Shown piece after piece: positions 1,948 through 63,999 of a DNA stretch of 64,000 nt. A model generated the notes under the pieces. That model was not told the origin of the DNA, did not search any database, and saw nothing but the letters and a program-made list of their open reading frames with translations. How positions within the stretch are numbered: the first letter of the stretch is position 1; every line of letters begins with the position of its first letter. The DNA comes from Serratia proteamaculans (lineage in GTDB: Bacteria; Pseudomonadota; Gammaproteobacteria; Enterobacterales; Enterobacteriaceae): assembly GCF_013337185.1 (NCBI RefSeq), contig NZ_SWDE01000006.1, positions 1-64,000 of the forward strand. The letters run 5' to 3'. Position numbers and translations under genes: made by a program.

Positions 1948-3303
1948 TTACAGTATACGGCTAATCAATCGGTCGATACGGATACGGCGCAGACGGCGGA
2001 TCAGCTTACGCACTTTGATCGGATACTCCTGGATGCTTTGCAATTCCAGATAGTGTCCCACCACGGTGGTATGGGTACGGATGCACTCCAGCTCTTTATG
2101 CCGCTGCTCACGCATTTCCTGCTTGGGATCGTGGATCAGAATGGCATTTTCCAGATCCAACCGCCAGGCGCGTGGGTTGAGGTTATTACCGGTAATCAAC
2201 TGCCATTCGTCATCTACCCACATGCCTTTCAGGTGATAGCTGTTATCGCCGTCTTTCCACAGACGAACAATCAGCTGACCGGTATCGATATAACGTTGCA
2301 GACGGCTGAGAAAGCGTCGCAGATTGATTTCGTACAGGTAAGGCAGCGCACCGATAATTTTGAATGGCTGATCTTCCGGAATATAGAAGTCATTAGCGGT
2401 TTTATCACCGACAATGATTTCCACCTGCTTGCCCTGGCGCAACAGGTAGATGATATTGCGCACCAGCAGCGCCGGCAGGTTGAAGTAGGGGGTGCACAGC
2501 GTCAGTTTCTGATCGGCGCTGGACATCAGGTGGTGAATGGTTTTATTCAGAATGCTTTGTTTGCCCAGCCCAACCAGCGGAGTTACCGCCAGTTCATCGT
2601 TACCGGCGTTGTTGCGAAACTGATAGCCGGCACGGCGCAGGCCGAAACGGAACAGGCGAGTTTCGTTTTTGATCTCAGGGCTTTTCGGGCGATCGTCACG
2701 ATCCAGACGTTGTACGGCACCGGCGGTTAGCAGATGCTGCTTGATGTAATCGACCAGGGTATTGGCCAATTCACCGTTGGTGATCAGTTGGTAGCGATCG
2801 TAACGGTATTTTTCATGCTGATGCAGGTAAACGTCATTGATACTGGCACCGCTGTAAATCACGGTATCGTCGACAACAAAACCTTTCAGGTGCAACACGC
2901 CCAAGGCTTCACGGGTGTTGACCGGCACGCCGTATATCGGTACCGGCAGCCCCGGGTGCTGGTCTGCCATTGAGCAGTACCAGTCGGCGTTGGTATTGGC
3001 GGCCGCGGCGCCGATGCGCCCACGCTGGGCACGATGCCAGTCGACCAGAATGCAAATCTCCAGCTCCGGACACCGCTGCTTCGCCTGATAAAGTGCATTG
3101 AGAATATCGCGCCCGGCGTCGTCGTGCTCCAGATACAGAGCGACCAGATAAATACGTTGGGTGGCGTTAGCGATTAATTCCAGCAGGGTGGCGCGGTAAT
3201 CAGACGGCGTGTACAAAGTGCGTACATCAGCCACCGTCTGGGGGAGTTTGGGCAGTTGTGCAAGGTGTTGTTGATGTTTGCTACGTTTAAATTTTGACAA
3301 CAT
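1948..3303 (-). CDS. pssA: CDP-diacylglycerol-serine O-phosphatidyltransferase
   Basis: Makes phosphatidylserine from CDP-diacylglycerol and serine, the first committed step to phosphatidylethanolamine; the enzyme is peripheral to the inner membrane. It belongs to the phospholipase D superfamily and both HKD motifs are intact: H138-x-K140-xxxx-D145 and H357-x-K359-xxxx-D364. The ATG at 3303 gives 451 residues starting MLSKFKRSKH, the same as E. coli; a GTG one codon upstream (3306) is possible but less likely. It is separated by about 150 bp from patZ upstream and by a terminator from yfiM downstream. Confidence 0.96.
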   Translation of the reverse strand: MLSKFKRSKHQQHLAQLPKLPQTVADVRTLYTPSDYRATLLELIANATQRIYLVALYLEHDDAGRDILNALYQAKQRCPELEICILVDWHRAQRGRIGAAAANTNADWYCSMADQHPGLPVPIYGVPVNTREALGVLHLKGFVVDDTVIYSGASINDVYLHQHEKYRYDRYQLITNGELANTLVDYIKQHLLTAGAVQRLDRDDRPKSPEIKNETRLFRFGLRRAGYQFRNNAGNDELAVTPLVGLGKQSILNKTIHHLMSSADQKLTLCTPYFNLPALLVRNIIYLLRQGKQVEIIVGDKTANDFYIPEDQPFKIIGALPYLYEINLRRFLSRLQRYIDTGQLIVRLWKDGDNSYHLKGMWVDDEWQLITGNNLNPRAWRLDLENAILIHDPKQEMREQRHKELECIRTHTTVVGHYLELQSIQEYPIKVRKLIRRLRRIRIDRLISRIL

Positions 3304-3456
3304 CACAGTGCGCTTCTTCTCTCATGATTAGATGGCCTGAACGCCAAATACGGAAAAACAACAAATCGAATAATCGGGCGATAATACCACTAGTTGCCTC
3401 GATTGTGCGTATGTTTTGGCGTTAAGTGGTGGATTCGTAGCGCATTGCGACACAGG

Positions 3457-51613: not shown

Positions 51614-51718
51614 ATTCTTCCTTTCATCTGCCTATTTTCGCTCATTTCACGCTATGGCTGCCTCTGGATAAGGCATATTATTAGACGGTCTTTATTGATA
51701 CCCAATGAAAGGATTCGG

Positions 51719-52069
51719 ATGATGGCATTTGAAGATAAGAAGAAAAAGGCAATAGCCCTGATGGAAGATAAAAAGATGTGGCGGAGCAATTATGCACCAC
51801 CGATCTTGCGCCTGTTTTGGAAAATGGGGGGTAAAATGCCACCGCCACCGTTTGCCCCCTTCTGGCTGAATACGTTGTTCTTCGCCGTCTGGTTCGGCCC
51901 TCTATGGGGCATTTTCATGTGGTTTAGTAGCTGGAAAAATCAAGGCTTAAGCGTATTGCTTGCGGTGTTTACCGCCCTCTTTGCCGGTTTGCTGTTTGGT
52001 TTATTCATGGCGCTAATTCACTCTTGGCGCAAGCGGGCCAACAAACTGCCTGACTGGAAGAGTCTCTAA
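51719..52069 (+). CDS. DUF6404-like small membrane protein
   Basis: A 116-residue protein (two adjacent ATGs, 51719 and 51722; AAAGGA about seven bases upstream). A charged N-terminus with FEDKKKKAIALMEDKKMWRS is followed by APPILRLFWKMGGKMPPPPF and two membrane spans (FWLNTLFFAVWFGPLWGIFM and LSVLLAVFTALFAGLLFGLF). I take it as the DUF6404 type. The in-frame extension to 51530 belongs to the IS remnant and is rejected as the start. It lies between the two 24-bp repeats. Confidence 0.72.
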   Translation: MMAFEDKKKKAIALMEDKKMWRSNYAPPILRLFWKMGGKMPPPPFAPFWLNTLFFAVWFGPLWGIFMWFSSWKNQGLSVLLAVFTALFAGLLFGLFMALIHSWRKRANKLPDWKSL

Positions 52070-52080
52070 CAGGGCAATAA

Positions 52081-52173
52081 TCTGAACGCCAATCGGAGCT
52101 GCGGAGAAGTCCGATGCTACGGATGCAGGTTGCTAACGAACTGAAGGAAAAACGCCAGCGCTTGCAACAATAA
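52081..52173 (+). pseudogene. Possible C-terminal remnant of a mobile-element protein
   Basis: Thirty codons between two stops encode RQSELRRSPMLRMQVANELK followed by EKRQRLQQ and a stop. The highly basic, helical end looks like the tail of a longer coding sequence, perhaps a recombinase or phage protein. There is no start context. Low certainty. Confidence 0.3.
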
Positions 52174-52276: not shown

Positions 52277-52300
52277 TTACAGACACAAAAAAGCCCGCAA
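52277..52300. repeat. 24-bp direct repeat, right copy
   Basis: Identical to 51481-51504 over 24 bp. Here the repeat continues into an intact hairpin (52291-52321). Confidence 0.7.
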
Positions 52301-52321
52301 ACCTAGGTGGTATGCGGGCTT
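52291..52321. terminator. Terminator hairpin at right repeat
   Basis: AAGCCCGCA pairs with TGCGGGCTT over 9 bp with a 13-nt loop. A run of T residues follows on the minus strand (AAAAAA in the plus strand), so it most likely ends the minus-strand gene at 52514-53209. On the plus strand only CTTTCC follows. Confidence 0.65.
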
Positions 52322-52513
52322 TCCGTACTTCTCCGGACTTATCTGGTAATACCCGGATCATCATTTGGGGCTGGGGGAATCTGAATAAATCGATTAGTCT
52401 GTTGTAATCATTGATGAAAATCGAGTTCAGATTTGTTGGGTATACCTAAACGTATACCAATGCAGGAAAGTGACACCGATTTAGAGGGGGATTTTAGAAT
52501 CTGGTACCACCAA

Positions 52514-53209
52514 TTAGCGCCTTTTTTCCCATGCTTGCTTGATGAGCTGCACATCAGGTTTGAAGCGCGACATGTGGCGGATACCTACCACAGGCACATC
52601 GAATTGCTTAAACCGTGCTGTAAAGCAGAACGTGGAGTAGTAGCGGTTTCGGCTTATGTACTCGGGTTCATCGCCATCGCCGAATGCTTTTAATAGCAAG
52701 CGAGCTGCTGAGTGAGAGTTCATTCCGTTACTGTAAGCAATAATTAGCTCAGGTTTGCATAGGGGGACGGTAACGTTTTCAAAGAAACTCATTGATTTTT
52801 CAATCAGTCGATCCAAACTGCCAATCGCGCTCTCTTGAGCACATTTTTTGAGCGACAGGGCATCTTTAGAACACATGAGTAGTGCATTGGTATAGACAGT
52901 ATCTTGCCATCTAAAGCCTAGCTGTTCAGGGACTGATTGCAGGCGGTTTGCCAAATGTTTGATACCCCATTCACCTTCAGTACCGGCCTGAACATTAGAG
53001 AAATAAGGTGAATTAAAGCCGCTTATCACTGCTTCAGCATTTGTAAAACCGTCATCCGCAGATGAACCATTGAACCCAACCATGATTAAACGCTTTCTTG
53101 CTGGCTTGGCGGCCAGTAATTCGAAGGAACAGTCATAAGGGCGGCCGGGGAGTTTGCTTAAACCATGCCGCTCTAATCCTTCCATAATTATTTTCTTGGT
53201 CGTTTCCAT
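52514..53209 (-). CDS. Unknown 231-aa protein, uracil-DNA-glycosylase-like motifs
   Basis: A soluble protein I do not recognise by family. Its motif order resembles the uracil-DNA-glycosylase superfamily: RLIMVGFNGSSADD (near residue 40, like the GxNxS water-activating loop), DTVYTNALLMCSK (near 103), a strand-plus-helix CKPELIIAYSNGMNSHSAA (near 155), and a late VPVVGIRHMSRF (near 205, like the HPS/HxSR loop). It could be a base-excision or nucleotide-binding enzyme of that fold. It lies alone at the edge of the defence island and reads toward the core. Codon use is more AT-rich than the core. Confidence 0.6.
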   Translation of the reverse strand: METTKKIIMEGLERHGLSKLPGRPYDCSFELLAAKPARKRLIMVGFNGSSADDGFTNAEAVISGFNSPYFSNVQAGTEGEWGIKHLANRLQSVPEQLGFRWQDTVYTNALLMCSKDALSLKKCAQESAIGSLDRLIEKSMSFFENVTVPLCKPELIIAYSNGMNSHSAARLLLKAFGDGDEPEYISRNRYYSTFCFTARFKQFDVPVVGIRHMSRFKPDVQLIKQAWEKRR

Positions 53210-53304
53210 CTTAGTGGTTACCCCTTAAATGAGTCTGTTTTTGGCTCTGCCCCATGATAGATCCAATCCGTCATCTCACTCAGAAAAAAAAGATTTATAG
53301 AAAA

Positions 53305-53410
53305 ACTGGTCACACTGTTCACTTTTGGTTTTAGTTGTTTTAAAACAATGAATTAACTGGTGATTAGTCGGTGATGAGTTTGCCCTGACTGGTCACTTAC
53401 CGTGAACAGT
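53305..53410. repeat. Cluster of ACTGKTCAC-type words (iteron-like)
   Basis: ACTGGTCAC at 53305-53313 abuts ACTGTTCAC at 53314-53322; ACTGGTGAT is at 53356-53364, ACTGGTCAC at 53388-53396, and the inverted form GTGAACAGT at 53402-53410. The GTGAACAG core recalls the type I iterons bound by the P4-phage alpha replication protein. No such gene is in the window. Confidence 0.45.
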
Positions 53411-53450
53411 CAGCCCCAAAAAGGCAAAATGCCGACTTGAACCGATTATT

Positions 53451-53671
53451 GAGTTACTTTTCACTATGATGTCGGTGATTTCTGCTGTCGCAGAATTTGA
53501 GCGGGATCTGTTGCTTGAGCGCACGCACTCAGGTATTGCGAGGGCAAAACAGCTGGAAAGCGATTTGGTCGTCCTTCAGCACTGAATGAAGAACAGCAAC
53601 TTACTGTGATTATACGTATAAACACCGGGATCAGTATCAGCGCCTTTGCACGGGAATTTGATAACACCTGA
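53451..53671 (+). pseudogene. Frameshifted serine recombinase (resolvase/invertase) fragment
   Basis: The frame from 53451 reads [20 protein letters not shown], then [13 protein letters not shown], the E-helix region of small serine recombinases. Near 53548 one base is missing; in the shifted frame the sequence goes on [20 protein letters not shown] and ends with a helix-turn-helix-like [11 protein letters not shown] and TGA (53671). The catalytic N-terminal domain is absent. It is a relic of a transposon or phage. Confidence 0.75.
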
Positions 53672-54017
53672 TAAACAATACTCTGGGTTAACAGGTTGCT
53701 ATGTGCCAGAAGCAAACCCTGCGAGCATCATTGTGTAGTAAACGGGTATTACCATATCTCCAACCTTTATTAATCAGGCTTTTTATAAATAGGTTTTTAG
53801 TAATGTGATGCTCTCCCAAGTTAAAGGCAGCAGTTAGAAGTATGATGCTGGCTGGATTGTGGCAGATGCCCATTACATCGCTGCAAAAATGACCAAGCCC
53901 AACAAATTTAACAAGATATCCGAGAAACCACGTTATTTGAGATTTTCATTTACCTGTTGGAGTGATTTAATCGAGTCTCAATTTATTTAGGATACCTGTA
54001 GCCTCGGGATTGCTTAG

Positions 54018-55049
54018 ATGCAATATTTTGAAGTGGATACGTTTTATGACGAGGTCCCTACATGGGCTGCTACTGCTCTAAGTCTGGGCTATCGGTGGAA
54101 CCTAGGTTGCGGTAATGCTCGTCGGATCGGTCTGTTGTCTATGCCGTGCGAGTCGGAGGCTGCTGGTCTTATCGCTCTGGGCGCCCTGCGGAATGATCTG
54201 GAGCGTACGACGGCAAACCACGTGGATATGCACTTCGATTTTCTGCTGCGAACATGCCACGAGCGTATTGCCGCGAAGGTGCGATGCGGGGCCCATCCTG
54301 AAGAGCTCTCGTGGGATGTGCGTGACTCCGTTGACGATACTCGCTGGCGTTTTGTTGCCTTTAATGGCGAGTTAGATGCCATTGTTCTCGAGAAAGCTAC
54401 ATACCGGCCTTTTGTCAAAAGGAAGGGCAAAAGCATCCCTAATCCGCACGGGGTCTGCACCTGTTACATCATGCGTGGCAACGCCATCCGCTGGCAGTTG
54501 CGCGATTGCCCCTTGCCGCAGTTACCTCATGACGGGAAGGGGCTGGAATACTCCGAGTATCGCGATCTCCCGGGATGCGCCGGCCCTATCTTGGAAGCAA
54601 ATCTGCGTCAGTCCTATGATGGCCTAGTCTTGGTTGGGCAGGGGGGGGCGCGTGACTCCAGTTATATGCAGAAGCTTTATGCTGCGGGTTTCGCAACAGC
54701 TGACCGCAGATTTTCGCTGGGCGATCTGCTGACTCTGCATCACACTGAGCGGCAATACATACGGCGCCTTCGCTTCCTCAACGAGAGAGTGCATCAAGAC
54801 GAGGCCATACATGCGGCCTGGTTAGTGGTGGCCGATGGCATATCGGCGCTGCTCTGTGCGGAGAAACTGTTCCCTTCGAGCGACATCATTGGTGTCTGCA
54901 ACCGTGATGCATCTGTCGAGTCGATCCTCCAGCTCAAGGACTGGTTGAATAATATCAGCCGCTACTACAAAGATAGGGACGCCAGCAATTGTCTGTTGGG
55001 TGAAATGCAAACCGGAATGCAGCTGCGCGTGCTGCAACGAAGGATGTGA
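54018..55049 (+). CDS. Unknown 343-aa protein, first gene of DISARM-like operon
   Basis: I do not recognise this protein. It appears soluble, with no signal peptide or membrane span. Visible features: an aromatic-rich front (MQYFEVDTFYDEVPTWAATA), a Cys-containing middle (GVCTCYIMRGNAIRWQLRDC), a glycine-turn segment LVLVGQGGARDSSYMQKLY, and a helical, charged C-terminal third (LLTLHHTERQYIRRLRFLNE, then AAWLVVADGISALLCAEKLF). No nucleotide-binding loop or nuclease motif is evident. It opens a coupled five-gene operon with a NERD-helicase, DrmA- and DrmB-like genes, so a role in that defence complex is inferred. Its stop overlaps the next gene's GTG; the alternative ATG follows at 55052. The start has only a weak GGGA site. 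Confidence 0.8.
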   Translation: MQYFEVDTFYDEVPTWAATALSLGYRWNLGCGNARRIGLLSMPCESEAAGLIALGALRNDLERTTANHVDMHFDFLLRTCHERIAAKVRCGAHPEELSWDVRDSVDDTRWRFVAFNGELDAIVLEKATYRPFVKRKGKSIPNPHGVCTCYIMRGNAIRWQLRDCPLPQLPHDGKGLEYSEYRDLPGCAGPILEANLRQSYDGLVLVGQGGARDSSYMQKLYAAGFATADRRFSLGDLLTLHHTERQYIRRLRFLNERVHQDEAIHAAWLVVADGISALLCAEKLFPSSDIIGVCNRDASVESILQLKDWLNNISRYYKDRDASNCLLGEMQTGMQLRVLQRRM

Positions 55050-55051
55050 CC

Positions 55052-56659
55052 ATGATTATCCCGACAACCGCGCGCTTGCAGTTTCTAGATAGTAATCCGC
55101 CGTTCCAAGAGCTCTTTATTGGCGAGTCTCCGCTTTTTTCCGCGATCCGCCACCATATGCGGATACTTTATTCAGCACTTTACCAGCTAGATAGCGGCCC
55201 TGACGTGAACGAGTCGGCCCTGCTGCTTCGCTTCGAGATGCAGAAGTGGCTGACGTCACCTTTGATACCCGATATTGGCCTCTTTCCCCGCTGTGGCCTT
55301 GCCGATGCAGCGCAGATTCGCCGGCAGTGGGGGGCGAATGCCGTACAAACCGTCGAGCTCCTGAAAGACCTGATCACCTGTTACGCTGAGGAGGGCTCTG
55401 TACTTAATGCGGAGTTCGTCCGGTTATTCATCGAACTTAAGTGCGAATATGGGAAAGACAACGTCAGGATTTGGTGCCATCCCAAAGAACGCGACCTTTT
55501 TCGCAAGCTGCTCGAAGGGTTGGTGGACCTCAATGATGGGGGATTCGTAAGCACACTTGCAGAGTACCGCAAGATCCCTCCGGCAGATGCGTTGATCCGA
55601 TTCGGACCTTTGCGCACGCGTGGCTTCGGCAGTGCGCCGGAGGCATTAATTACTTCCCCATCATACCGTCGTCTGGTCCGCTTTGTTTGGTCAGGGCTGG
55701 CAGATGAGGAAGGATTTGCCGATGATCCGGTACTGCCCACCTACAACTATCTGGCCAGCCTGCGTTCAGTTCGGACTACCGTCAGCGAGAATCCCAGAAC
55801 GATGACTGTGCCTCCTACGGCTGAACAAGTTGATGATCTTGTGTACCTTGACAATAAGACGTCCACGGGCAAAGCCTTGCATCGATGTGTGCTAGTGGAG
55901 TTTCCAGCTGAGTACGGAGTGCTTCTTCGTCCGGGGTCCCGCTTGCTGGTATTCAGTCCCCATCGCACCGACATTGAGGCCATTGGCTACAGACAGATTA
56001 ATGAAGTAGAAGCAGATGATTACCTGCTGATTCACGATGCTGATGCTGACCTTGGTGAGGTTAGTGTCGATGCCTCTAAAGCGCCGCTGGCTGCCCTCTG
56101 GAAAAAGGCGCTGGCTGATGCTTGGAAACGACATCCCAATATATGTCTTCAGAAAATGCAGCAAGCCGGCATTGATCTCCAAGATCTGCATCGTGCGGTC
56201 CACAAATGGAAAGAAAGCAATGGTACTGTGATTCCGGCGCCGCTGCGTAAGAGGCATTTCGAAGCATTGCTGATAAAGGTACTTGATCCGGATCTTATTC
56301 CACCGATGGTGGTTAATGGCAGAACTGTTCCTGGATGGCGTCGGGCGTGGAGAGAGGTCGAGGCCTCTCGGGTTAACGCGATACAACATGGAGCGGTTGA
56401 GCATGCCATTGTAAACGAACAACTAACTGCGGAGCTGCGTAGAGAATTGCCTGCTATTCGCAGTATGCTCTCGTTAGTATATGTATATCCTCACCGGCTT
56501 GAGCCGGAAAGTGGCCTGACCGGCAGCGTGTTATTTAAACCTGTGATTAGTATTTCGCCGGACTTTGCTGCTCCGGCAGAGGTGCTGGAAAAACTGCTCA
56601 AGCTGCCGATTGCTGAACGGTATCGCGCAGGCTTAGGAGGCGAGCATTTGTGCGCATGA
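55052..56659 (+). CDS. Unknown 535-aa protein, second gene of DISARM-like operon
   Basis: Not recognised. Probably cytoplasmic. The first half has a helical block ending RFGPLRTRGFGSAPEALITS and SYRRLVRFVWSGLADEEGFA. The middle has a beta-rich region with LLRPGSRLLVFSP and VEADDYLLIHDADADLGEVS, and the last third is helical with a W-x-x-AL pattern (LWKKALADAWKRH) and GTVIPAPLRKRHFEALLIKV, which vaguely recalls the C-terminal regions of other phage-defence proteins such as DrmE. The ATG at 55052 has GAAGGA seven bases upstream; a GTG two codons earlier overlaps the previous stop. Its own stop lies inside the start of the NERD-helicase gene, so translation is coupled. Confidence 0.8.
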   Translation: MIIPTTARLQFLDSNPPFQELFIGESPLFSAIRHHMRILYSALYQLDSGPDVNESALLLRFEMQKWLTSPLIPDIGLFPRCGLADAAQIRRQWGANAVQTVELLKDLITCYAEEGSVLNAEFVRLFIELKCEYGKDNVRIWCHPKERDLFRKLLEGLVDLNDGGFVSTLAEYRKIPPADALIRFGPLRTRGFGSAPEALITSPSYRRLVRFVWSGLADEEGFADDPVLPTYNYLASLRSVRTTVSENPRTMTVPPTAEQVDDLVYLDNKTSTGKALHRCVLVEFPAEYGVLLRPGSRLLVFSPHRTDIEAIGYRQINEVEADDYLLIHDADADLGEVSVDASKAPLAALWKKALADAWKRHPNICLQKMQQAGIDLQDLHRAVHKWKESNGTVIPAPLRKRHFEALLIKVLDPDLIPPMVVNGRTVPGWRRAWREVEASRVNAIQHGAVEHAIVNEQLTAELRRELPAIRSMLSLVYVYPHRLEPESGLTGSVLFKPVISISPDFAAPAEVLEKLLKLPIAERYRAGLGGEHLCA

Positions 56660-58359
56660 TTCCCGGATTTATCGACGAGACTTCACCGCCCGGTGAGATT
56701 GACCTTTACCGGAAACTCGAAAGTGCCCGGTGCAACTGGACCGTTATCCATTCGCTGGATCTGGCACCGAGCAACCATAACAGGCGCACCGAACTTGACT
56801 TTGTGATTGTGATTCCCGACGTTGGCATTCTCTGCATTGAGGTCAAATCGCATCGAGAGATTGGCTTCGACGGCGATCACTGGTACCCAAAAAGCATTAC
56901 AAAATCGCCGTTCCGCCAAGCACAGGATGCTCGTTATGTTCTGCGGCGTCGGCTGGTGGAGCGGTTAGCGATCTTTTCTCAAGTCCCAGTGATTCATTGC
57001 TGTGTTTTCCCTCGGGCAGATTTTACCGTGCCGCCCAATCTGTCGGTTAGTCCATACGAGGTGATGGACCGTTACCGGTTCGATGCCTGTACAACGGGCG
57101 ATGCGCTGTGTGAAGCTCTTAAAAAAATGGCCCTGCGGATCATCTATGCGGATCCAACGATCGCCCTGCTGAAGGCACCACTGTCAGGGGCGCAGGTAGA
57201 AGATTTCGTCAGTTTCTGCTTCCCCATCCGTACACGCCGGCCGGAAAAGTTCACCGAAATTCGCTATCGCGAGGAGGAGCTTGAGAAGCTATTGCGCGAT
57301 CAACAATACCCGGTGCTTCGTTTGACGGATTACAACCCGAGGGTGCTAGTTGAAGGGGGGGCAGGAACCGGTAAGTCACTAATAGGTATTAGCGTGGCTC
57401 GGCTCAAGGCGGCTCAAGGTCTAAGGGTAGGTTATCTCTGTTTTAACAGGCTGATCGGTCAATGGGCTGCCAGTCAGCTAGAGGAAGAACACAACCCGCT
57501 TTTGGTCGGGGGCTCTGCCTTAAGCGTGTTGATGTCCCTTACTGGGGTAAGTGTGCCGGAAAATCCAAACGATGATTTCTGGTCCAGCGTAGCGCTGGAG
57601 GTCCAAGACCGCCTCACGGATCCATCTTGTGCGCATGATGCTCGGTTCGACTATCTGGTCATCGACGAGGCGCAGGATATTCTCGGGCGCCCAGACCTGT
57701 TGGACTGCCTCCGTCTGCTTATAGATGGTGACCTAGATGGCGGCCGCTTCCTTATGTTAGGTGACTTCCGCAATCAGGTACTGACAGGAGCAACGGCACT
57801 GGAGGTCCCCCTAGCTACCGTGCGGAAGAATTCAGCCCGCTGGGTACTTACGGAAAACTGTCGCAACTACAAGACCGTTGGCCAGTTCGCAATGAAGCTC
57901 TCTCAGGCAGACAGGAGCACCTACTCCGGTTACCTACGACAGGGGGGCGGCCTGAATGCATGGAACCTTGAGCTGTACAAGGACGCAGCGGATCAAATCC
58001 GCAAGATCATGATATGTATAGATTCAGCTTTGGCCAGCGGATTCCGGGAGGCCGACATTACGGTGCTTTCCTTCGGGTCTGAACGTCGCTCAGTGCTCCC
58101 ATTGCTTCGCGAGGCCTGCAACCGCGCATTCGTCTCCGTCGGAAATTCGAGCACCAAGGGCATACGCTACTCCACTGTTCCAGCCTACAAGGGGCTGGAG
58201 AACAAGGTCATCATCATCACTGATGTAATTCCTTCTGATAGTGGGTTTGATCGCAACCGCTTTTATACGGGAATCACCCGGGCCCAAGAGCGGCTCCATC
58301 TATTTTGTCATGCATCAGGTGCATCACAGCTAGCTGAATGGGTGACAAGTGCCAGGTAA
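56650..58359 (+). CDS. NERD nuclease-UvrD/PcrA-type helicase fusion
   Basis: A 569-residue two-domain protein. The N-terminal NERD domain (about 10-125) has the nuclease-like set E48/D50...E64-V-K66 (ELDFVIVI, LCIEVKSH). The superfamily 1 helicase part has Walker A GGAGTGKS (K242), Walker B VIDEAQD (D339), LGDFRNQVL (motif III), LTENCRN (motif IV) and NRFYTGITRAQERLHLF (motif VI, R544). The GTG at 56650 has AGGAGG nine bases upstream, better than the ATG at 56656. It likely unwinds and cuts DNA; NERD domains are found in several defence operons. It is third of five coupled genes and overlaps the second by 10 bp. Confidence 0.9.
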   Translation: MRMIPGFIDETSPPGEIDLYRKLESARCNWTVIHSLDLAPSNHNRRTELDFVIVIPDVGILCIEVKSHREIGFDGDHWYPKSITKSPFRQAQDARYVLRRRLVERLAIFSQVPVIHCCVFPRADFTVPPNLSVSPYEVMDRYRFDACTTGDALCEALKKMALRIIYADPTIALLKAPLSGAQVEDFVSFCFPIRTRRPEKFTEIRYREEELEKLLRDQQYPVLRLTDYNPRVLVEGGAGTGKSLIGISVARLKAAQGLRVGYLCFNRLIGQWAASQLEEEHNPLLVGGSALSVLMSLTGVSVPENPNDDFWSSVALEVQDRLTDPSCAHDARFDYLVIDEAQDILGRPDLLDCLRLLIDGDLDGGRFLMLGDFRNQVLTGATALEVPLATVRKNSARWVLTENCRNYKTVGQFAMKLSQADRSTYSGYLRQGGGLNAWNLELYKDAADQIRKIMICIDSALASGFREADITVLSFGSERRSVLPLLREACNRAFVSVGNSSTKGIRYSTVPAYKGLENKVIIITDVIPSDSGFDRNRFYTGITRAQERLHLFCHASGASQLAEWVTSAR

Positions 58360-58364
58360 AAAGT

Positions 58365-61300
58365 ATGAATAAGGAACGATCTGCAGAAATCGAGTTTCTT
58401 CGTGGAGAGCTGGTGGGGCCCTCGCGCGTCATCGAAACCGTTACAACCTTCGGAATGGTTACTATTGATGCACAAGGCAGCTTCCGGCTTTCCGGGGAAG
58501 AGTTCGGGCCCCTTTACTACCAATGCGGAGACAGCGATGTTCTGCAGGAAATCGTCCACTACAATGGCGAAACGCCTATGCAACGTTATGGCGCGGGCCT
58601 TTTGTACCCACGTAAATATATGCAGGGGATGGTAATTGACGATCATGCGGACCCTGGATCATCCGCTGGGCTAATAAACGACGGTGAGAATGGAGAGAAC
58701 GCATTGACTGAGACAGTGCTGGCAGTGGTCTCCAATCCGGAAGTGTCGACGTTGCCTGCAATGTTTACCAGCGGTGACCCAGCTTCAGAGGGAGGTGGCA
58801 CTGAGGCGGATGACGATGATTTCGAGGTTGGCAGTGACGATATGTACCAACCCTCGGTCATGGGTATTAGCTTCTGCCTGGAGGAGAGTGAAGGCGAATT
58901 TGTCGTATCGCTTCCCGCTGCTAAAAAGTTCTTTTGGCAGCTACCAGAGGCCGCCGCGTTCCCAGTCAACGGAAGGTATGAACCCTGTATTAAAGTAACG
59001 AGCAAGGAGAATGGTGAACATCGTGCGGAGGCGTGGCGGCGTGTGCCGGCTACAACTGTTGCTACGTGTGAACGATTTCTGTTGGCTAGCCTAAAGCCCG
59101 GAAAAACCGAGTCAAGGAGCCTGAGCTTGCCTGGGGGGCTTGCTTTACAGATCCAAGTTTTTCCACGACGCATGCATGGCAAGTGGATTGTCACATGCGT
59201 ACTGCGCAACCAACAGGATGCCCAAGCGGCCAAGAGCAAAGCAGATCAGATCCGAAGCATCCTCTTTCAGGCGTACTTCCAGGTGCGGGTGCAGGGCGGT
59301 GCAGTCTTTAGCCGTTACCCTGAAGGAGTCAGGCCGTTCGAACAGCTCGATGATGACGAGAAAACGCTCTCCCTGCTGTACCGTGACCAAGCTACTTGGG
59401 CGATCGGACACGGTTGTGCGGCGGGATGGGATCTTGTCGAAGGGGGAGTACCGGATGCTATTTTCGCGGATGTGATGCCGGCCGTGGAACTGCCGAGTAT
59501 GACTCCTGACATCACGGACCGCGAGGGAGACCCTGTCACCCTATCTATGCGTGATCTAGCGGGGCTTACAACCTTTGCCCCGGGCGCTCAGGACTGGGCA
59601 CCACTCGATAGTCTCGTGCAAGAGTATGCTGCTTGGATTGATGCTCGCGAGGCAGGCAGCGAGAAGCTATCGCCCCAGTTGCGTGATGTAGCCACAAGCC
59701 ATCTGGATGACTGCCGCCAAAGCCTCAAGCGCATCAGACACGGCATTGCGATCCTGCAAACCGACACCACTGCACTAGAGGCATTTCGTCTGGCCAATCA
59801 GGCAATGCTGCTCCAGCAGGTAGCATCCAAACAGATCTCTCGTCGCCCGCTAGTCCTCCTCAACAACTATGTGGTTGCTGAGGAGGTACCTGAAGGACAG
59901 CCACGCACACCATGGGAGGTGTGGATTGATGGTTCCGAAAAACAGGGTGTCGGCAAATGGCGAGCCTTCCAGGCAGCGTTCTTGCTTATGAGTATCGCCG
60001 GACTGGTTGAGGAACGTTGTGATGACCGGGAAATCGTCGACCTGATCTGGTTCCCCACAGGCGGAGGCAAGACCGAAGCCTATCTCGCAGTCGCCGCTTT
60101 CTACATGTTCCACCAACGCTTGATTTCGCGCGTAGATGATGAACTGCGTCGTGATGGCACCAATGTATTCATGCGCTACACCTTGCGGATGCTGACCACA
60201 CAGCAATTCCAGCGTGCTGCCAGCCTGATCTGCGCTATGGAACAAATCAGAGTACGCCGGGAAAAGGAGGCCGCCAGCCCCTCGCTAGGGACCTCCTGCT
60301 TCACACTTGGACTCTGGGTTGGTGGTGATGGTTCACCAAATAAATGGGCTGATGCCAGCAAAGCGGTCCGCAAATATGACTCCGGAGATGTGACAGGAAA
60401 TCCGTTAGTCTTGACGGAGTGCCCTTGGTGCCGGAGCACAATCGGCCGGTTGACTCAAGCCTCGTCCAGTAAAGGCAAGAAGAACAAGAACAGCAATCTC
60501 GCTGGGCTGGTCGGTGGAAAGCAGCCGTACCTGATGTGCTCTGACACTGGATGTGAATATGGTGGCGAACGCAGTAGGCTACCTGTCGAGGTTATCGACG
60601 AAGCCATCTACAAAGATCCACCATCCATGTTCATCGGGACCGCTGACAAGTTCGCAATGATGGCCTGGAAGCCGGAAACCGGCGCACTGTTTGGCTTGGA
60701 TCATGGCAAAGAGGGAGAAGTGATTCCTGTCAGACGCCCCCCAGGATTGGTGATCCAAGATGAGTTTCACCTGATTTCAGGGCCTTTGGGTACGATCTAT
60801 GGGTTATATGAGGGGGTGATCGAGCAGCTTTGCAGCGCAAAGAACAGGCGTTATCTGATAAAGCCCAAGATAATCGCCTCGACCGCCACCATTCGGGGGG
60901 CGGCAGAGCAGGTACGTACTGTCTATGCCCGTGAGAAGCTGCAGCTGTTTCCCAGCCCAGGGCTGGAGATGGGCGACTCGTTTTTCGGCCGTTACGCCAA
61001 GGACAAAGATGGACAGCTGAAACAAGGCCGACTCTACCTAGGAATTCACGCCAGCGGTTATCGGTCTTTCCTGACAACTCAGGTCCGTGCATTTTCGACT
61101 GTGTTGTTCAGAGCGTGGATGTTCGATGACAACAAGAAAGATGCATGGTGGACCCTGCTGGCGTTCTACAACAGCTTGCGTGAGCTGGGTGGTGCCCAGA
61201 CCCTGTTCCAGTCTGACATTGCTGCGCGTCTAAAGGACTATTCATCGCGTTATGGGCTCAAAGGCGGCCCTCAACGCTACCTCAATACTGTGGAAGAGTT

Positions 61301-62078
61301 GACCAGTCGTCAGAGTCAGGCACAGCTGGTTGAGTTAATGGATCGGTTGGCGCTCCCTTGGGATGCCAAGGACAGCTTGGATGCCTGTCTTGCGTCCAAT
61401 ATCATCGAAGTTGGAGTGGATATCGACCGGCTAGCGTTGATGGCTGTTGTCGGTCAGCCCAAGTCAACCGCTCAGTACATTCAGGTGACAGGCCGGGTAG
61501 GACGGCGCTGGTGGGAACGTCCTGGACTGATTCTGAGCATGTTCAACCCGGGGAAGAGTCGCGACCGCTCGCACTTTGAGCAGTTTCATAGTTATCACCG
61601 CCGTCTCTATGAGCGGGTCGAGCCGACTTCGGCTACACCATTTTCGGTTGAAGCAGTGGAGCGCGCACTGGCAGGAGTAATGCTGCTCTGGGCACGGCAG
61701 CGGCATGGTGCCAGCTCGCCTGGTGAGGCCTTCGGCGACTATGCCGACTATTTGAACGAGGCGCTTGAGCTGCTGCTTGAACGATGCGGAGCCATCATGG
61801 AGGTTCAACCAGATGAATTGGATCGAGTATGCGAAGCCATGCGCAAAGTACACAGTGAACTCCTCAATAAGTGGAAAACCAATCCACAAGAGTGGTGGGC
61901 GTACCCGCAAAAGAAAGATGGAGAGTATCTGATGCTATGGACAGGTGAGTTCGCGACTAGGGAGCAGAAACGAAAAGGGATGCGGGTTCTCAGCAGCATG
62001 CGCAATGTTGACGGCACTGCCCGGGCAGCAATCAGCAGCAACTATTTAGGCGAGGAGCATACAGAGCATGGCCAGTGA
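58365..62078 (+). CDS. drmA: DrmA-like giant DISARM helicase
   Basis: A 1237-residue superfamily 2 helicase-like protein. An N-terminal region typical of DrmA (MNKERSAEIEFLRGELVGP, later MQRYGAGLLYPRKY) precedes Walker A FPTGGGKTEAYL (K569), an inserted zinc-finger-like set (C686-P-W-C, then CSDTGC), Walker B-type IQDEFHLISG (D799), SNIIEVGVDIDRL and motif VI QVTGRVGRR (R1044). In DISARM, DrmA and DrmB form the DNA-binding, translocating core. The ATG at 58365 has AGG eight bases upstream; an in-frame ATG nine codons earlier (58338) overlaps the NERD gene but lacks a site. It overlaps drmB by 11 bp. Confidence 0.87.
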   Translation: MNKERSAEIEFLRGELVGPSRVIETVTTFGMVTIDAQGSFRLSGEEFGPLYYQCGDSDVLQEIVHYNGETPMQRYGAGLLYPRKYMQGMVIDDHADPGSSAGLINDGENGENALTETVLAVVSNPEVSTLPAMFTSGDPASEGGGTEADDDDFEVGSDDMYQPSVMGISFCLEESEGEFVVSLPAAKKFFWQLPEAAAFPVNGRYEPCIKVTSKENGEHRAEAWRRVPATTVATCERFLLASLKPGKTESRSLSLPGGLALQIQVFPRRMHGKWIVTCVLRNQQDAQAAKSKADQIRSILFQAYFQVRVQGGAVFSRYPEGVRPFEQLDDDEKTLSLLYRDQATWAIGHGCAAGWDLVEGGVPDAIFADVMPAVELPSMTPDITDREGDPVTLSMRDLAGLTTFAPGAQDWAPLDSLVQEYAAWIDAREAGSEKLSPQLRDVATSHLDDCRQSLKRIRHGIAILQTDTTALEAFRLANQAMLLQQVASKQISRRPLVLLNNYVVAEEVPEGQPRTPWEVWIDGSEKQGVGKWRAFQAAFLLMSIAGLVEERCDDREIVDLIWFPTGGGKTEAYLAVAAFYMFHQRLISRVDDELRRDGTNVFMRYTLRMLTTQQFQRAASLICAMEQIRVRREKEAASPSLGTSCFTLGLWVGGDGSPNKWADASKAVRKYDSGDVTGNPLVLTECPWCRSTIGRLTQASSSKGKKNKNSNLAGLVGGKQPYLMCSDTGCEYGGERSRLPVEVIDEAIYKDPPSMFIGTADKFAMMAWKPETGALFGLDHGKEGEVIPVRRPPGLVIQDEFHLISGPLGTIYGLYEGVIEQLCSAKNRRYLIKPKIIASTATIRGAAEQVRTVYAREKLQLFPSPGLEMGDSFFGRYAKDKDGQLKQGRLYLGIHASGYRSFLTTQVRAFSTVLFRAWMFDDNKKDAWWTLLAFYNSLRELGGAQTLFQSDIAARLKDYSSRYGLKGGPQRYLNTVEELTSRQSQAQLVELMDRLALPWDAKDSLDACLASNIIEVGVDIDRLALMAVVGQPKSTAQYIQVTGRVGRRWWERPGLILSMFNPGKSRDRSHFEQFHSYHRRLYERVEPTSATPFSVEAVERALAGVMLLWARQRHGASSPGEAFGDYADYLNEALELLLERCGAIMEVQPDELDRVCEAMRKVHSELLNKWKTNPQEWWAYPQKKDGEYLMLWTGEFATREQKRKGMRVLSSMRNVDGTARAAISSNYLGEEHTEHGQ

Positions 62079-63999
62079 CATTCGGCTGGGGCAATTGATT
62101 GTCCCCTTCGGGCCGGGGAGCATCTATACCGACAAGAACGGTGTACCTAATATAATCTGCGGGCTAGACTTCTGGCATAAACAGATGGATGAGAAAGGCA
62201 AGTGGACGGTGGATGAGGCCGCCATGCGCAGGCATGTGATTGACGAGCCTCGACTATCTGCTCTGCTTCAGGTTCCACAATTCCGCCAGCCGCCAGAATA
62301 CTGCCGTGACGACCAGAATCCAGGGCTATCGGGGCTGGAAATCCAGACTCACCGCTTTCCTACTTGGTATGTCGACAGCTACAGCGGAAAAATGCGCCGT
62401 TTCAGCCTAGATACCCGGAAACTTACCCCGCTCCCAAATGACAAAAAACCAAATTGGCGCCCCGTGCGTTTCATCAGCGTCTGCAGCCAAGGGCATATTG
62501 CAGATTTCCCATGGAAAGCTTGGTGTGGATGTACCTGCCCAGGGGATAGCGGACTGGTGCTTAAGGATTCCGGCGGCCCAGACCTGAGGTCCGTTAAAGT
62601 CACCTGCTCGATATGCAAGAAATGGAAAACCTTGGCGGGAGCAATGAGCATGGTTCGCGATCCCGACAGTGGCAAAATCGATAAATCCGGACTTAAGTCG
62701 GCAGGGATCTTCTGTAGTGGTGAGCGTCCTTGGCTGGGCTTGGCAGCTCAGCCATGCCAAGAACCCCCTGTTGCAGTGCTGATCAACCAGTCGAACATCT
62801 ATTTTGGAAAAGTGCTGTCTTCAATCTATCTGCCGAATATGAGCAGCGAACAATGCGTTACTGACATTCAGAAGATACTGAGAAATGATGATCTGGATTT
62901 AAGCGTCGTAAAGCTATTTATCCAGCTCGGAATTATCTCGGAAGCACTAAAAAAGCTCCATGAGATCCTGCTCCCCTATTACCCCAGCCTGCCTGATGAC
63001 GCGTTGATAATGCAGGCCATGGACGCTCTCAACCAAGGCAGCTCGCTGGCAGATGGAGGCCCTCAGCCTGTAATGGCAGAATCAGAGTCCCAGAAATACC
63101 GCCGGGCCGAGTACAACGTACTACGCAATGAAGTAGCCCTTGGAGTAGACAACGAACTAAGGGTAATTCCAAGCTTGGTTCCGCTTGGGCTGAAATCTTG
63201 GTTCGGGCGGATCAATCTGGTTGAAAAGCTGCGTGAAACCCGGGTTTTTTGTGGCTTTGACAGACTTATACGGGAAAGGGAGCCGTTGGCTAGCATGCCG
63301 GACTCAGCTATGAACCAGCTTTTCCTTCACCCGCCGGCACCAGAATCCCAGTGGCTGCCTGCTATCAAGAATTATGGTGAAGGTATTTTCGTCGAGTTGG
63401 ATGAGGGCGCCGTCAGCAATTGGCTTGCAGAGAATGCCGAGTGGCTTGCACACCGGCTGGATCAGGCGTTTGTGGCACGCATGGCTGACGAGAAAAACCT
63501 GATGCCACCGCTCCAGAGTAATTACGTTACGCCACAATGGGCTGCCCGATACCTTCTGGTTCACACCTTGGCTCACATCATGATCAATCAGATGGTGTTT
63601 GAATGTGGTTACTCCTCAGCTTCGCTGAAAGAACGCATCTTTGTATCTAGCGATCCAGAGGCACCGATGGCGGCCTTTCTCATTTTCACCGCAGCCGGAG
63701 ATTCGGAAGGTAGTCTGGGCGGGTTGGTTCGTATCGGCCGGCCTAAGCTTTTTGAGCCGATGGTTCTCAGGGCTCTTTCTCGGGCGTCTTGGTGCTCTGC
63801 TGATCCTGTCTGTTCGGAGGATTTGGGTGGGACGGGTTCGCGACGGGTCAACAAAGCAGCCTGCCATGCCTGTGTACTATTGCCGGAAACAGCATGCGAA
63901 ACAGTCAACAGCGGGCTGGATCGTGCTATGGTCATCGGGACGCCGCAGGCACCGCATCATGGATTCCTATCGGAATTGATTAAAGGGGGTTCCATCTGA
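62068..63999 (+). CDS. drmB: DrmB-like DUF1998 protein
   Basis: A 643-residue protein, complete at the very end of the window. The start (LGQLIVPFGPGSIYTDKNGV, then ICGLDFW) is of the DrmB type. A Cys cluster from residue 139 (CSQGHIADFPWKAWCGCTC and VTCSICKKW) looks like a zinc site. The DUF1998 domain is at about 490-620: YLLVHTLAHIMINQMVFECG, DSEGSLGGLVRIG, and a second Cys set ending AACHACVLLPETAC (C599, C602). In DISARM, DrmB binds DrmA. GAGGAG lies about 11 bases before the ATG. Whether drmC follows cannot be seen. Confidence 0.87.
   Translation: MASDIRLGQLIVPFGPGSIYTDKNGVPNIICGLDFWHKQMDEKGKWTVDEAAMRRHVIDEPRLSALLQVPQFRQPPEYCRDDQNPGLSGLEIQTHRFPTWYVDSYSGKMRRFSLDTRKLTPLPNDKKPNWRPVRFISVCSQGHIADFPWKAWCGCTCPGDSGLVLKDSGGPDLRSVKVTCSICKKWKTLAGAMSMVRDPDSGKIDKSGLKSAGIFCSGERPWLGLAAQPCQEPPVAVLINQSNIYFGKVLSSIYLPNMSSEQCVTDIQKILRNDDLDLSVVKLFIQLGIISEALKKLHEILLPYYPSLPDDALIMQAMDALNQGSSLADGGPQPVMAESESQKYRRAEYNVLRNEVALGVDNELRVIPSLVPLGLKSWFGRINLVEKLRETRVFCGFDRLIREREPLASMPDSAMNQLFLHPPAPESQWLPAIKNYGEGIFVELDEGAVSNWLAENAEWLAHRLDQAFVARMADEKNLMPPLQSNYVTPQWAARYLLVHTLAHIMINQMVFECGYSSASLKERIFVSSDPEAPMAAFLIFTAAGDSEGSLGGLVRIGRPKLFEPMVLRALSRASWCSADPVCSEDLGGTGSRRVNKAACHACVLLPETACETVNSGLDRAMVIGTPQAPHHGFLSELIKGGSI

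What the first reader, a model, noticed from the sequence alone, without database searches (positions are those of the whole stretch)
54018..63999. Five-gene operon with a DISARM core but a non-standard accessory set
Seen: five plus-strand genes, the last two with DrmA- and DrmB-type domain signatures, preceded by a NERD-helicase fusion and two unrecognised proteins. Known: class 1 DISARM has drmD and drmMI, class 2 has drmE and drmMII, with drmA-drmB-drmC in common. Inference: this is a DISARM-related defence module in which the helicase/methyltransferase part is replaced by a NERD-UvrD protein and two novel proteins. This is the strongest candidate in the window for an undescribed system.
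Basis: partly seen in the sequence, partly recalled or inferred. Interest (0 to 1): 0.92.

Follow-up and report, generated by a model that had tools for sequence, protein, structure and literature searches.

The report
DISARM variant with split DrmE
Five linked genes in a bacterial genomic island form a variant of the known phage-defence system DISARM, in which one known protein is cut into two genes and a different predicted DNA-cutting enzyme is present where the usual one is missing.

Summary
Genes 4 and 5 are DrmA and DrmB. The two "novel" proteins are not new families: gene 2 is the C-terminal half, and gene 1 most likely the N-terminal half, of DrmE, the class 2 DISARM protein. Gene 3 is a NERD nuclease fused to an SF1 helicase; its key residues are kept in 44 of 44 sequences aligned. 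No drmC, drmD or drmM gene was found beside it. All five genes recur in order in 26 other loci of the 101 examined, spread over ten named phyla. On a DrmA tree all 39 split-DrmE loci fall in one clade of 46; the other seven lie at contig or record ends. Two thirds of the split loci carry a C5-cytosine methyltransferase nearby. The window's genome has only chromosomal Dcm. The operon sits in a 29.7-kb island at ssrA that also carries Gabija. Best reading: a DISARM variant ("NERD-DISARM") that senses foreign DNA with DrmAB and cuts it with the NERD-helicase. It is a new variant of a known kind. The nuclease role, the dead-helicase fold of DrmE and the use of host Dcm are inferences.

The parts
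54018..55049 (+). gene 1, 343 aa: predicted N-terminal half of DrmE (DrmE-N); no P-loop
   Evidence: Profile of 37 relatives matches the N-terminal 400 residues of single-gene DrmE (hhalign prob 93.4, E 2.5e-7) and not the C-terminal half (prob 0.1); directly upstream of gene 2 in 36 loci
55046..56659 (+). gene 2, 537 aa: C-terminal half of DrmE (DrmE-C)
   Evidence: Profile of the family matches the C-terminal half of DrmE (hhalign prob 99.9, E 1.8e-33); relatives L017 and L018 hit DrmE_fam NF038316 and Pfam DrmE_C PF24957
56650..58359 (+). gene 3, 569 aa: NERD (PD-(D/E)xK-type) nuclease domain, residues 15-121, fused to an SF1/UvrD-like helicase
   Evidence: Pfam PF08378, PF13538, PF09848; nearest PADLOC model RTasNERD-Hel 4.3e-18; E16, E48, D50, E64, K66, Q90, K242, D339, E340, R544 identical in 44 of 44 aligned
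58338..62078 (+). gene 4, 1246 aa: DrmA, SF2 helicase of the YprA family
   Evidence: PADLOC DrmA 1.5e-202, NF038325 850 bits; PTGGGKT at 573, DEFH at 808
62068..63999 (+). gene 5, 643 aa: DrmB (DUF1998/MZB)
   Evidence: NF038324 374 bits, over cut-off; PF09369 MZB
52285..52368 (.). left end of the island: direct repeat, 83 of 84 bases identical to contig 81861-81944 at the 3' end of ssrA

Best explanation
The operon is a DISARM-type defence system related to class 2. DrmA-DrmB is the sensor/motor: by analogy with the solved complex it loads on unmethylated DNA with 5' overhangs and translocates. DrmE is made as two subunits (genes 1 and 2), which together look like a SF2 helicase fold that has lost its ATP-binding loop, and probably serve as a DNA-binding scaffold on the DrmAB complex. 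The gene 3 protein, a NERD nuclease with its own SF1 helicase motor, is the likely effector that unwinds and cuts the invading DNA, in a lineage where no DrmC (PLD) nuclease was found. Self DNA is spared through 5-methylcytosine: most relatives encode a C5 methyltransferase nearby, whereas this genome may rely on its chromosomal Dcm. Shown: gene identities, gene order, recurrence, one clade, intact motifs, no second C5 methyltransferase family hit in the genome. Inferred: anti-phage activity, complex formation, nuclease action, role of Dcm.
For: Gene 4/5 are DrmA/DrmB. Gene 2 is DrmE-C and gene 1 DrmE-N (prob 93.4 with the N half, 0.1 with the C half; gene 2 the reverse, 99.9 and 0.1). 19 of 20 single-gene homologues (835-1125 aa) upstream of DrmA match DrmE_fam NF038316, 5 of 20 also DISARM_DrmE. 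Five genes in order in 27 of 101 loci, window included. All 39 split loci in one clade of 46 rows on two DrmA trees, support 100. NERD-helicase directly before drmA in 31 of 39 split and 13 of 22 single-gene DrmE loci; drmC model hit in 0 of 39 and 0 of 22 at the threshold. NERD and helicase residues intact in 44 of 44. One PF00145 hit in the genome, the dcm-vsr locus. Gene 2 residues 16-222 resemble RecA2 of SF2 helicases, best Hef Z 11.2, 194 residues, 3.7 A. The operon shares an integrative island with Gabija.
Against: Gene 1 and gene 2 of the window hit no DrmE model themselves; the link is through relatives. Sequence support for gene 1 is moderate: HMMER --max reaches E < 0.01 in 4 of 20 single-gene DrmE, and its fold search gave Z 7.4 at best, within the noise band. 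Of four single-gene DrmE tested, PADLOC's DrmE model hit one. Foldseek gave no match under 0.001 for either model. 8 of 39 split loci lack the NERD-helicase beside drmA, so it is not essential to the lineage. 13 of 39 split loci lack a C5 methyltransferase in the held flanks; at least five of these are cut short. No activity was measured.
Confidence: 0.82

Rival explanations
1. Ordinary class 2 DISARM with DrmE split by chance; the NERD-helicase is a passenger gene of defence islands and DrmAB acts by blocking phage DNA, with no operon nuclease needed.
For: 8 of 39 split and 9 of 22 single-gene DrmE loci have no NERD-helicase beside drmA; Bravo 2022 reports DrmC dispensable (passages).
Against: The NERD-helicase sits directly before drmA, usually with overlapping or touching ends, in 31 of 39 split loci in ten phyla, always with intact residues. 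The split is shared by one old clade.
Confidence: 0.25
2. Gene 1 is not DrmE-N but an unrelated small subunit that occupies the place of a lost DrmE N-terminus.
For: Moderate sequence support (prob 93.4; 4 of 20 by HMMER) and inconclusive fold.
Against: Collinear position, combined length 343+537 = 880 aa against 835-925 aa in most single-gene DrmE, negative cross controls, always upstream of gene 2.
Confidence: 0.15
3. Abortive system: the NERD-helicase kills the cell by attacking host DNA after activation.
For: NERD-helicase proteins occur in other defence systems (PADLOC RTasNERD-Hel hit; NERD listed for Mokosh I and Nhi-like, passage of PMC10952713).
Against: DISARM and the related ARMADA act directly and without cell death in published work (ARMADA passages).
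Confidence: 0.12
4. Not a defence system: a DNA-repair operon built on YprA-family helicases.
For: YprA/MrfA relatives include repair helicases (PMC12458937 section 5).
Against: DrmE and DrmB types, mobile island, neighbouring Gabija, scattered distribution (1 of 198 genomes of the family for gene 1).
Confidence: 0.05

Closest known systems
DISARM class 2 (Bacillus paralicheniformis type; PADLOC type II: DrmA, DrmB, DrmC, DrmE, DrmMII)
   Same: DrmA, DrmB and DrmE homologues; most relatives with a C5 methyltransferase nearby.
   Different: DrmE is two genes; no DrmC found; a NERD-SF1 helicase precedes drmA; no methyltransferase gene with the window copy; DrmA falls in another clade than the Clostridia single-DrmE loci without NERD-helicase.
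DISARM class 1 (Serratia sp. SCBI type: DrmD, DrmMI, DrmA, DrmB, DrmC)
   Same: DrmA and DrmB.
   Different: No DrmD, PglX-like methyltransferase or DrmC; separate clade on the DrmA tree.
TALON and ARMADA (PMC12458937)
   Same: YprA-family helicase; TALON typically has a NERD nuclease.
   Different: Here drmA and drmB are separate genes and DrmE is present; the described TALON partners (TPR-CSD, TBP) and ARMADA partners (BrxHII-like helicase, PglX-like methyltransferase) are not in the operon.
NERD-helicases of other systems (PADLOC RTasNERD-Hel of DRT)
   Same: Gene 3 matches along its length (residues 11-552, 4.3e-18).
   Different: No reverse transcriptase in this operon; here the protein is tied to DrmA.
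MAD6 of the methylation-associated defence system
   Same: NERD domain similarity (NF047741, 35.5 bits, cut-off 460).
   Different: Gene 3 has a helicase in place of the kinase; far below cut-off.

Membership tests
DISARM (core) | DrmA helicase | tested here: met
   PADLOC DrmA 1.5e-202; NF038325 850 bits, below its 950 cut-off
DISARM (core) | DrmB (DUF1998) as separate adjacent gene | tested here: met
   NF038324 374 bits over cut-off 240
DISARM (core) | DrmC PLD-type nuclease | tested here: not met
   No drmC model hit in the island; nearest in the window is a 452-aa protein at 1948-3306 on the other strand, weak (1.4e-8). Published as dispensable and often missing (passages of PMC9142583)
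DISARM class 2 | DrmE | tested here: met
   As two genes: gene 2 firm, gene 1 moderate. No direct hit of the window's proteins to a DrmE model
DISARM class 2 | DrmMII C5-cytosine methyltransferase in the operon | tested here: not met
   Own genome has one PF00145 match, the dcm-vsr locus on another contig. Nearby in 26 of 39 split and 21 of 22 single-DrmE loci
DISARM class 1 | DrmD (SNF2) and DrmMI (PglX-like) | tested here: not met
   No hit in window or L002 with models from L026
[quoted passage not shown]
   No drmD- or pglX-type gene; DrmB is separate
TALON | NERD nuclease with TPR-CSD and TBP genes | tested here: inconclusive
   NERD present, but the other genes of the operon are DrmE halves, DrmA and DrmB; TPR-CSD and TBP were not searched for with their own models
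DISARM | Protection against phage or plasmid | not testable with these tools
   needs an experiment

The most novel reading that the evidence does not exclude
A third class of DISARM: a two-subunit, ATP-dead helicase (DrmE) and DrmAB deliver invading DNA to an operon-encoded NERD helicase-nuclease, which answers how DISARM operons without DrmC cut DNA; and in this enterobacterium the mobile copy has shed its methyltransferase and borrows the host's Dcm marks (CCWGG) to recognise self, so that it can be carried safely only by dcm-positive hosts.
Probability: 0.22. Interest if true: 0.78.

Novelty: new variant of a known kind. Interest (0 to 1): 0.58.

Why it matters
Published work states that it is a mystery how DISARM degrades DNA, since DrmC is dispensable and often missing (Bravo 2022, passages). 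A NERD helicase-nuclease next to drmA in a widespread lineage gives a candidate that can be tested with point mutants. PADLOC's published type II definition asks for DrmC and one DrmE (passage), and current models do not recognise the split halves, so such operons are likely to be missed or reported incomplete. A mobile copy without its own methyltransferase would test whether DISARM can use a host orphan methyltransferase.

Tried and rejected
ARMADA and class 1 DISARM: rejected on gene content.

Searches that gave nothing: DNA of the operon in E. coli genomes; gene 1 and gene 2 in plasmids and in viral contigs by single sequence; DrmA in the phage collection. Gene 1 in the genome's family: 1 of 198, the window's own. 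Fold searches: no Foldseek match under 0.001 for gene 1 or gene 2; gene 1 best Z 7.4 (NAT10, Zika NS3, MrfA among the rows), inside the tool's noise band. NF038316 in 299 genomes of the phylum found one, G825, whose 1792-aa DrmE carries an extra N-terminal ATPase-like part.

Dcm idea: methyltransferases near the relatives are varied; of 64 compared with the host Dcm, 56 matched at 1e-5, the best at 48% (L056) and 42% (L057), the next at 32-35% and lower, so a shared CCWGG target is shown for none.

An earlier count gave 28 of 36 with the NERD-helicase by a looser rule that took HelD in L018 and missed L045; one search replaces it.

Many are metagenome bins. The drmC model rests on five sequences; two ORFs outside the operons also matched it weakly (L052 1.5e-13 and window 1948-3306).

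Full report
What is there. The window is the first 64 kb of a 309,439-base contig in a 5.28-Mb genome. At 54018-63999 five plus-strand genes overlap end to start. The last base of gene 5 is one base before the end of the window, so I read the next 36 kb of the contig as well. Gene 3 is a NERD nuclease domain fused to an SF1 helicase, gene 4 is DrmA and gene 5 is DrmB. Genes 1 and 2 have no match in PADLOC, Pfam or NCBIfam up to E 0.1.

Recurrence. A search for DrmA in 369 genomes of the class gave 9 with a match at 1e-30, the window's own included; G529 and G410 have the whole five-gene block at 29% (gene 1), 27-30% (gene 2), 41-44% (gene 3), 50-51% (gene 4) and 46-48% (gene 5) identity (percentages are BLAST local alignments and rounded). 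Rhodococcus opacus plasmid pROB02 has the same layout. A scan of genome contigs with eight aligned DrmA proteins kept the best 80 of 544 confirmed loci. Profiles of genes 1 and 2, iterated on these loci, grew to 37 and 39 members. All five genes stand in order in 27 of 101 loci, that is 26 besides the window; those with a named organism lie in Actinomycetota, Acidobacteriota, Pseudomonadota, Nitrospirota, Thermodesulfobacteriota, Rhodothermota, Myxococcota, Dormiibacterota, Verrucomicrobiota and Chloroflexota. The loci were chosen by likeness to this DrmA, so these are not frequencies.

Genes 1 and 2 are DrmE in two pieces. The gene 2 relative in Nostoc sp. HK-01 matches NCBIfam DrmE_fam over profile positions 393-802 of 838 (3.6e-18, 65 bits, cut-off 80) and Pfam DrmE_C above its cut-off; the Priestia relative does likewise over 580-837. 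The gene 2 profile aligns to the C-terminal halves of single proteins of about 835-1125 aa that stand before drmA in other loci (for example residues 420-886 of 887). Of 20 such proteins, 19 match DrmE_fam and 5 also DISARM_DrmE at E 0.001, although PADLOC's DrmE model hit only one of four tested. Profile-profile comparison puts gene 1 on the N-terminal 400 residues of DrmE (prob 93.4, E 2.5e-7; 89.8 against the whole protein) and gene 2 on the C-terminal part (prob 99.9, E 1.8e-33); the cross comparisons gave prob 0.1. Single-profile support for gene 1 is weaker: 4 of 20 single-gene DrmE at E under 0.01 with all filters off. In 23 of 35 loci with adjacent genes 1 and 2 a start codon of gene 2 overlaps the stop of gene 1 by four bases.

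One lineage. On a FastTree of 101 DrmA proteins all 39 loci with split DrmE fall in one clade of 46 rows with support 100; a quick IQ-TREE run on 904 columns gives the same 46 rows with support 100. Three of the 39 show only one half: L037 is cut at the contig end, and in L061 and L116 the partner was not recognised. The seven rows without gene 1 or 2 (L021, L025, L029, L038, L040, L041, L054) begin at or within 1.7 kb of a contig or record end. Single-gene DrmE loci lie outside this clade.

The NERD-helicase. It is the gene directly before drmA in 31 of 39 split loci and 13 of 22 single-gene DrmE loci. The eight split loci without it are six from Bacilli and two from Nostoc. Residues E16, E48, D50, E64, K66 and Q90 of the NERD domain and K242, D339, E340 and R544 of the helicase are identical in 44 of 44 sequences; that D50, E64 and K66 are the catalytic set of this nuclease superfamily is recalled. 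A drmC model hit none of the 39 split or 22 single-gene loci at the threshold; with a five-sequence drmC model two distant ORFs matched weakly. So the NERD-helicase occurs where DrmC is absent; that it replaces DrmC in function is inference.

Methyltransferase. A C5-cytosine methyltransferase lies somewhere within the held flanks in 26 of 39 split and 21 of 22 single-gene DrmE loci. The window copy has none: the genome's one PF00145 match is on contig 13 and aligns with E. coli dcm and vsr at 69% DNA identity. A review states that the B. paralicheniformis DISARM methylates CCWGG (passage of PMC5957327); that E. coli Dcm has the same target is recalled. Four other loci with all five genes also lack a methyltransferase in the held flanks, L044 with a short flank (L044, L046, L052, L066). 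The methyltransferases beside relatives are diverse, 48% identical to the host Dcm at best. The borrowed-Dcm idea is thus open and testable, not shown.

Structure. AlphaFold2 models with 34 and 33 sequences gave mean pLDDT 80.7 (gene 1) and 81.2 (gene 2, pTM 0.56). Gene 2 residues 16-222 resemble the second RecA-like domain of SF2 helicases: Hef Z 11.2 over 194 residues at 3.7 A, then XPF, MDA5 and SNF2-type entries; 87 of 997 chains reach Z 8. Gene 1 gives SF2 helicase entries at Z 7.4 or less, which is not above noise. No P-loop pattern occurs in 37 of 37 gene 1 relatives; 5 of 60 gene 2/DrmE sequences hold one, in three cases in an extra N-terminal part. This suggests, and does not show, that DrmE is an ATP-dead helicase split between its two RecA-like domains.

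Setting. An 84-base direct repeat with 83 matches lies at 52285-52368 and at 81861-81944, the latter touching the 3' end of the tmRNA gene ssrA (81942-82322, minus) next to smpB; a tyrosine integrase lies just inside (80556-81791). The element of about 29.7 kb also holds a D5-type primase (65351-67684, minus) and a Gabija pair, GajB at 71494-73221 and GajA at 73218-75104. The tmRNA tag equals that of Serratia species in ARAGORN's list. The operon is therefore mobile defence cargo.

How it probably works. From the published DrmAB work (abstract and passages of PMC9142583): DrmAB is held inactive by a trigger loop, is opened by 5'-overhang DNA and is slowed by 5-methylcytosine. I infer that the two DrmE subunits dock on DrmAB and DNA, and that the NERD-helicase is recruited to cut. 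Confidence 0.82 refers to the filing as a DISARM variant with split DrmE and an operon NERD-helicase; the effector role alone I put near 0.6, the use of host Dcm near 0.3.

Novelty. Searches of the open paper library for DISARM with NERD, UvrD, DrmE or nuclease-related domain showed no paper describing this set. In PMC12458937 (abstract, passages, sections 5 and 8) NERD is tied to TALON and DISARM to PLD nucleases. PMC10952713 (passages) lists NERD for Mokosh I and Nhi-like only. The founding DISARM paper (Ofir 2018) is not held, so I cannot exclude a mention there.

Noticed in passing
contig C16 52285-81944 (window from 52285; L002, L003): About 29.7-kb integrative island at ssrA, bounded by an 84-base direct repeat (83 matches), with tyrosine integrase, D5-type primase and Gabija besides the operon.
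   Followed up: partly
window 51652-52091 and contig 64530-64969: Two copies (94% over 440 bases) of a DUF6404 gene on both sides of the operon, one outside and one inside the island; a second 172-base repeat (87%) lies at 53281-53452 and 64968-65139.
   Followed up: partly
window 53474-53691: Fragment about 87% identical to recombinase family genes of E. coli plasmids, just upstream of the operon.
   Followed up: no
window 52514-53209 (-): 231-aa reading frame between the left repeat and the operon with no Pfam or PADLOC match.
   Followed up: no
L036 4612-9990, L077 2762-7939: Very long DrmE proteins (1792 and 1725 aa) with an extra N-terminal P-loop ATPase-like part before the DrmE region.
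   Followed up: partly
L022, L023 (Azospirillum and Rhizobium plasmids): Other DrmAB arrangement: UvrD-helicase gene before drmA and NERD-helicase gene after drmB; possibly a further DISARM variant.
   Followed up: no
L020 (Streptomyces fungicidicus plasmid p1): DrmAB preceded by a 1273-aa protein annotated as a sigma-70 family factor.
   Followed up: no
L120 (IMG/VR contig): Methyltransferase, single-gene DrmE, NERD-helicase, DrmA and DrmB on a contig filed as viral.
   Followed up: no
L017 (Nostoc sp. HK-01 plasmid): A transposase gene sits between genes 1 and 2; a second HK-01 plasmid holds an 86% identical gene 2 relative.
   Followed up: no
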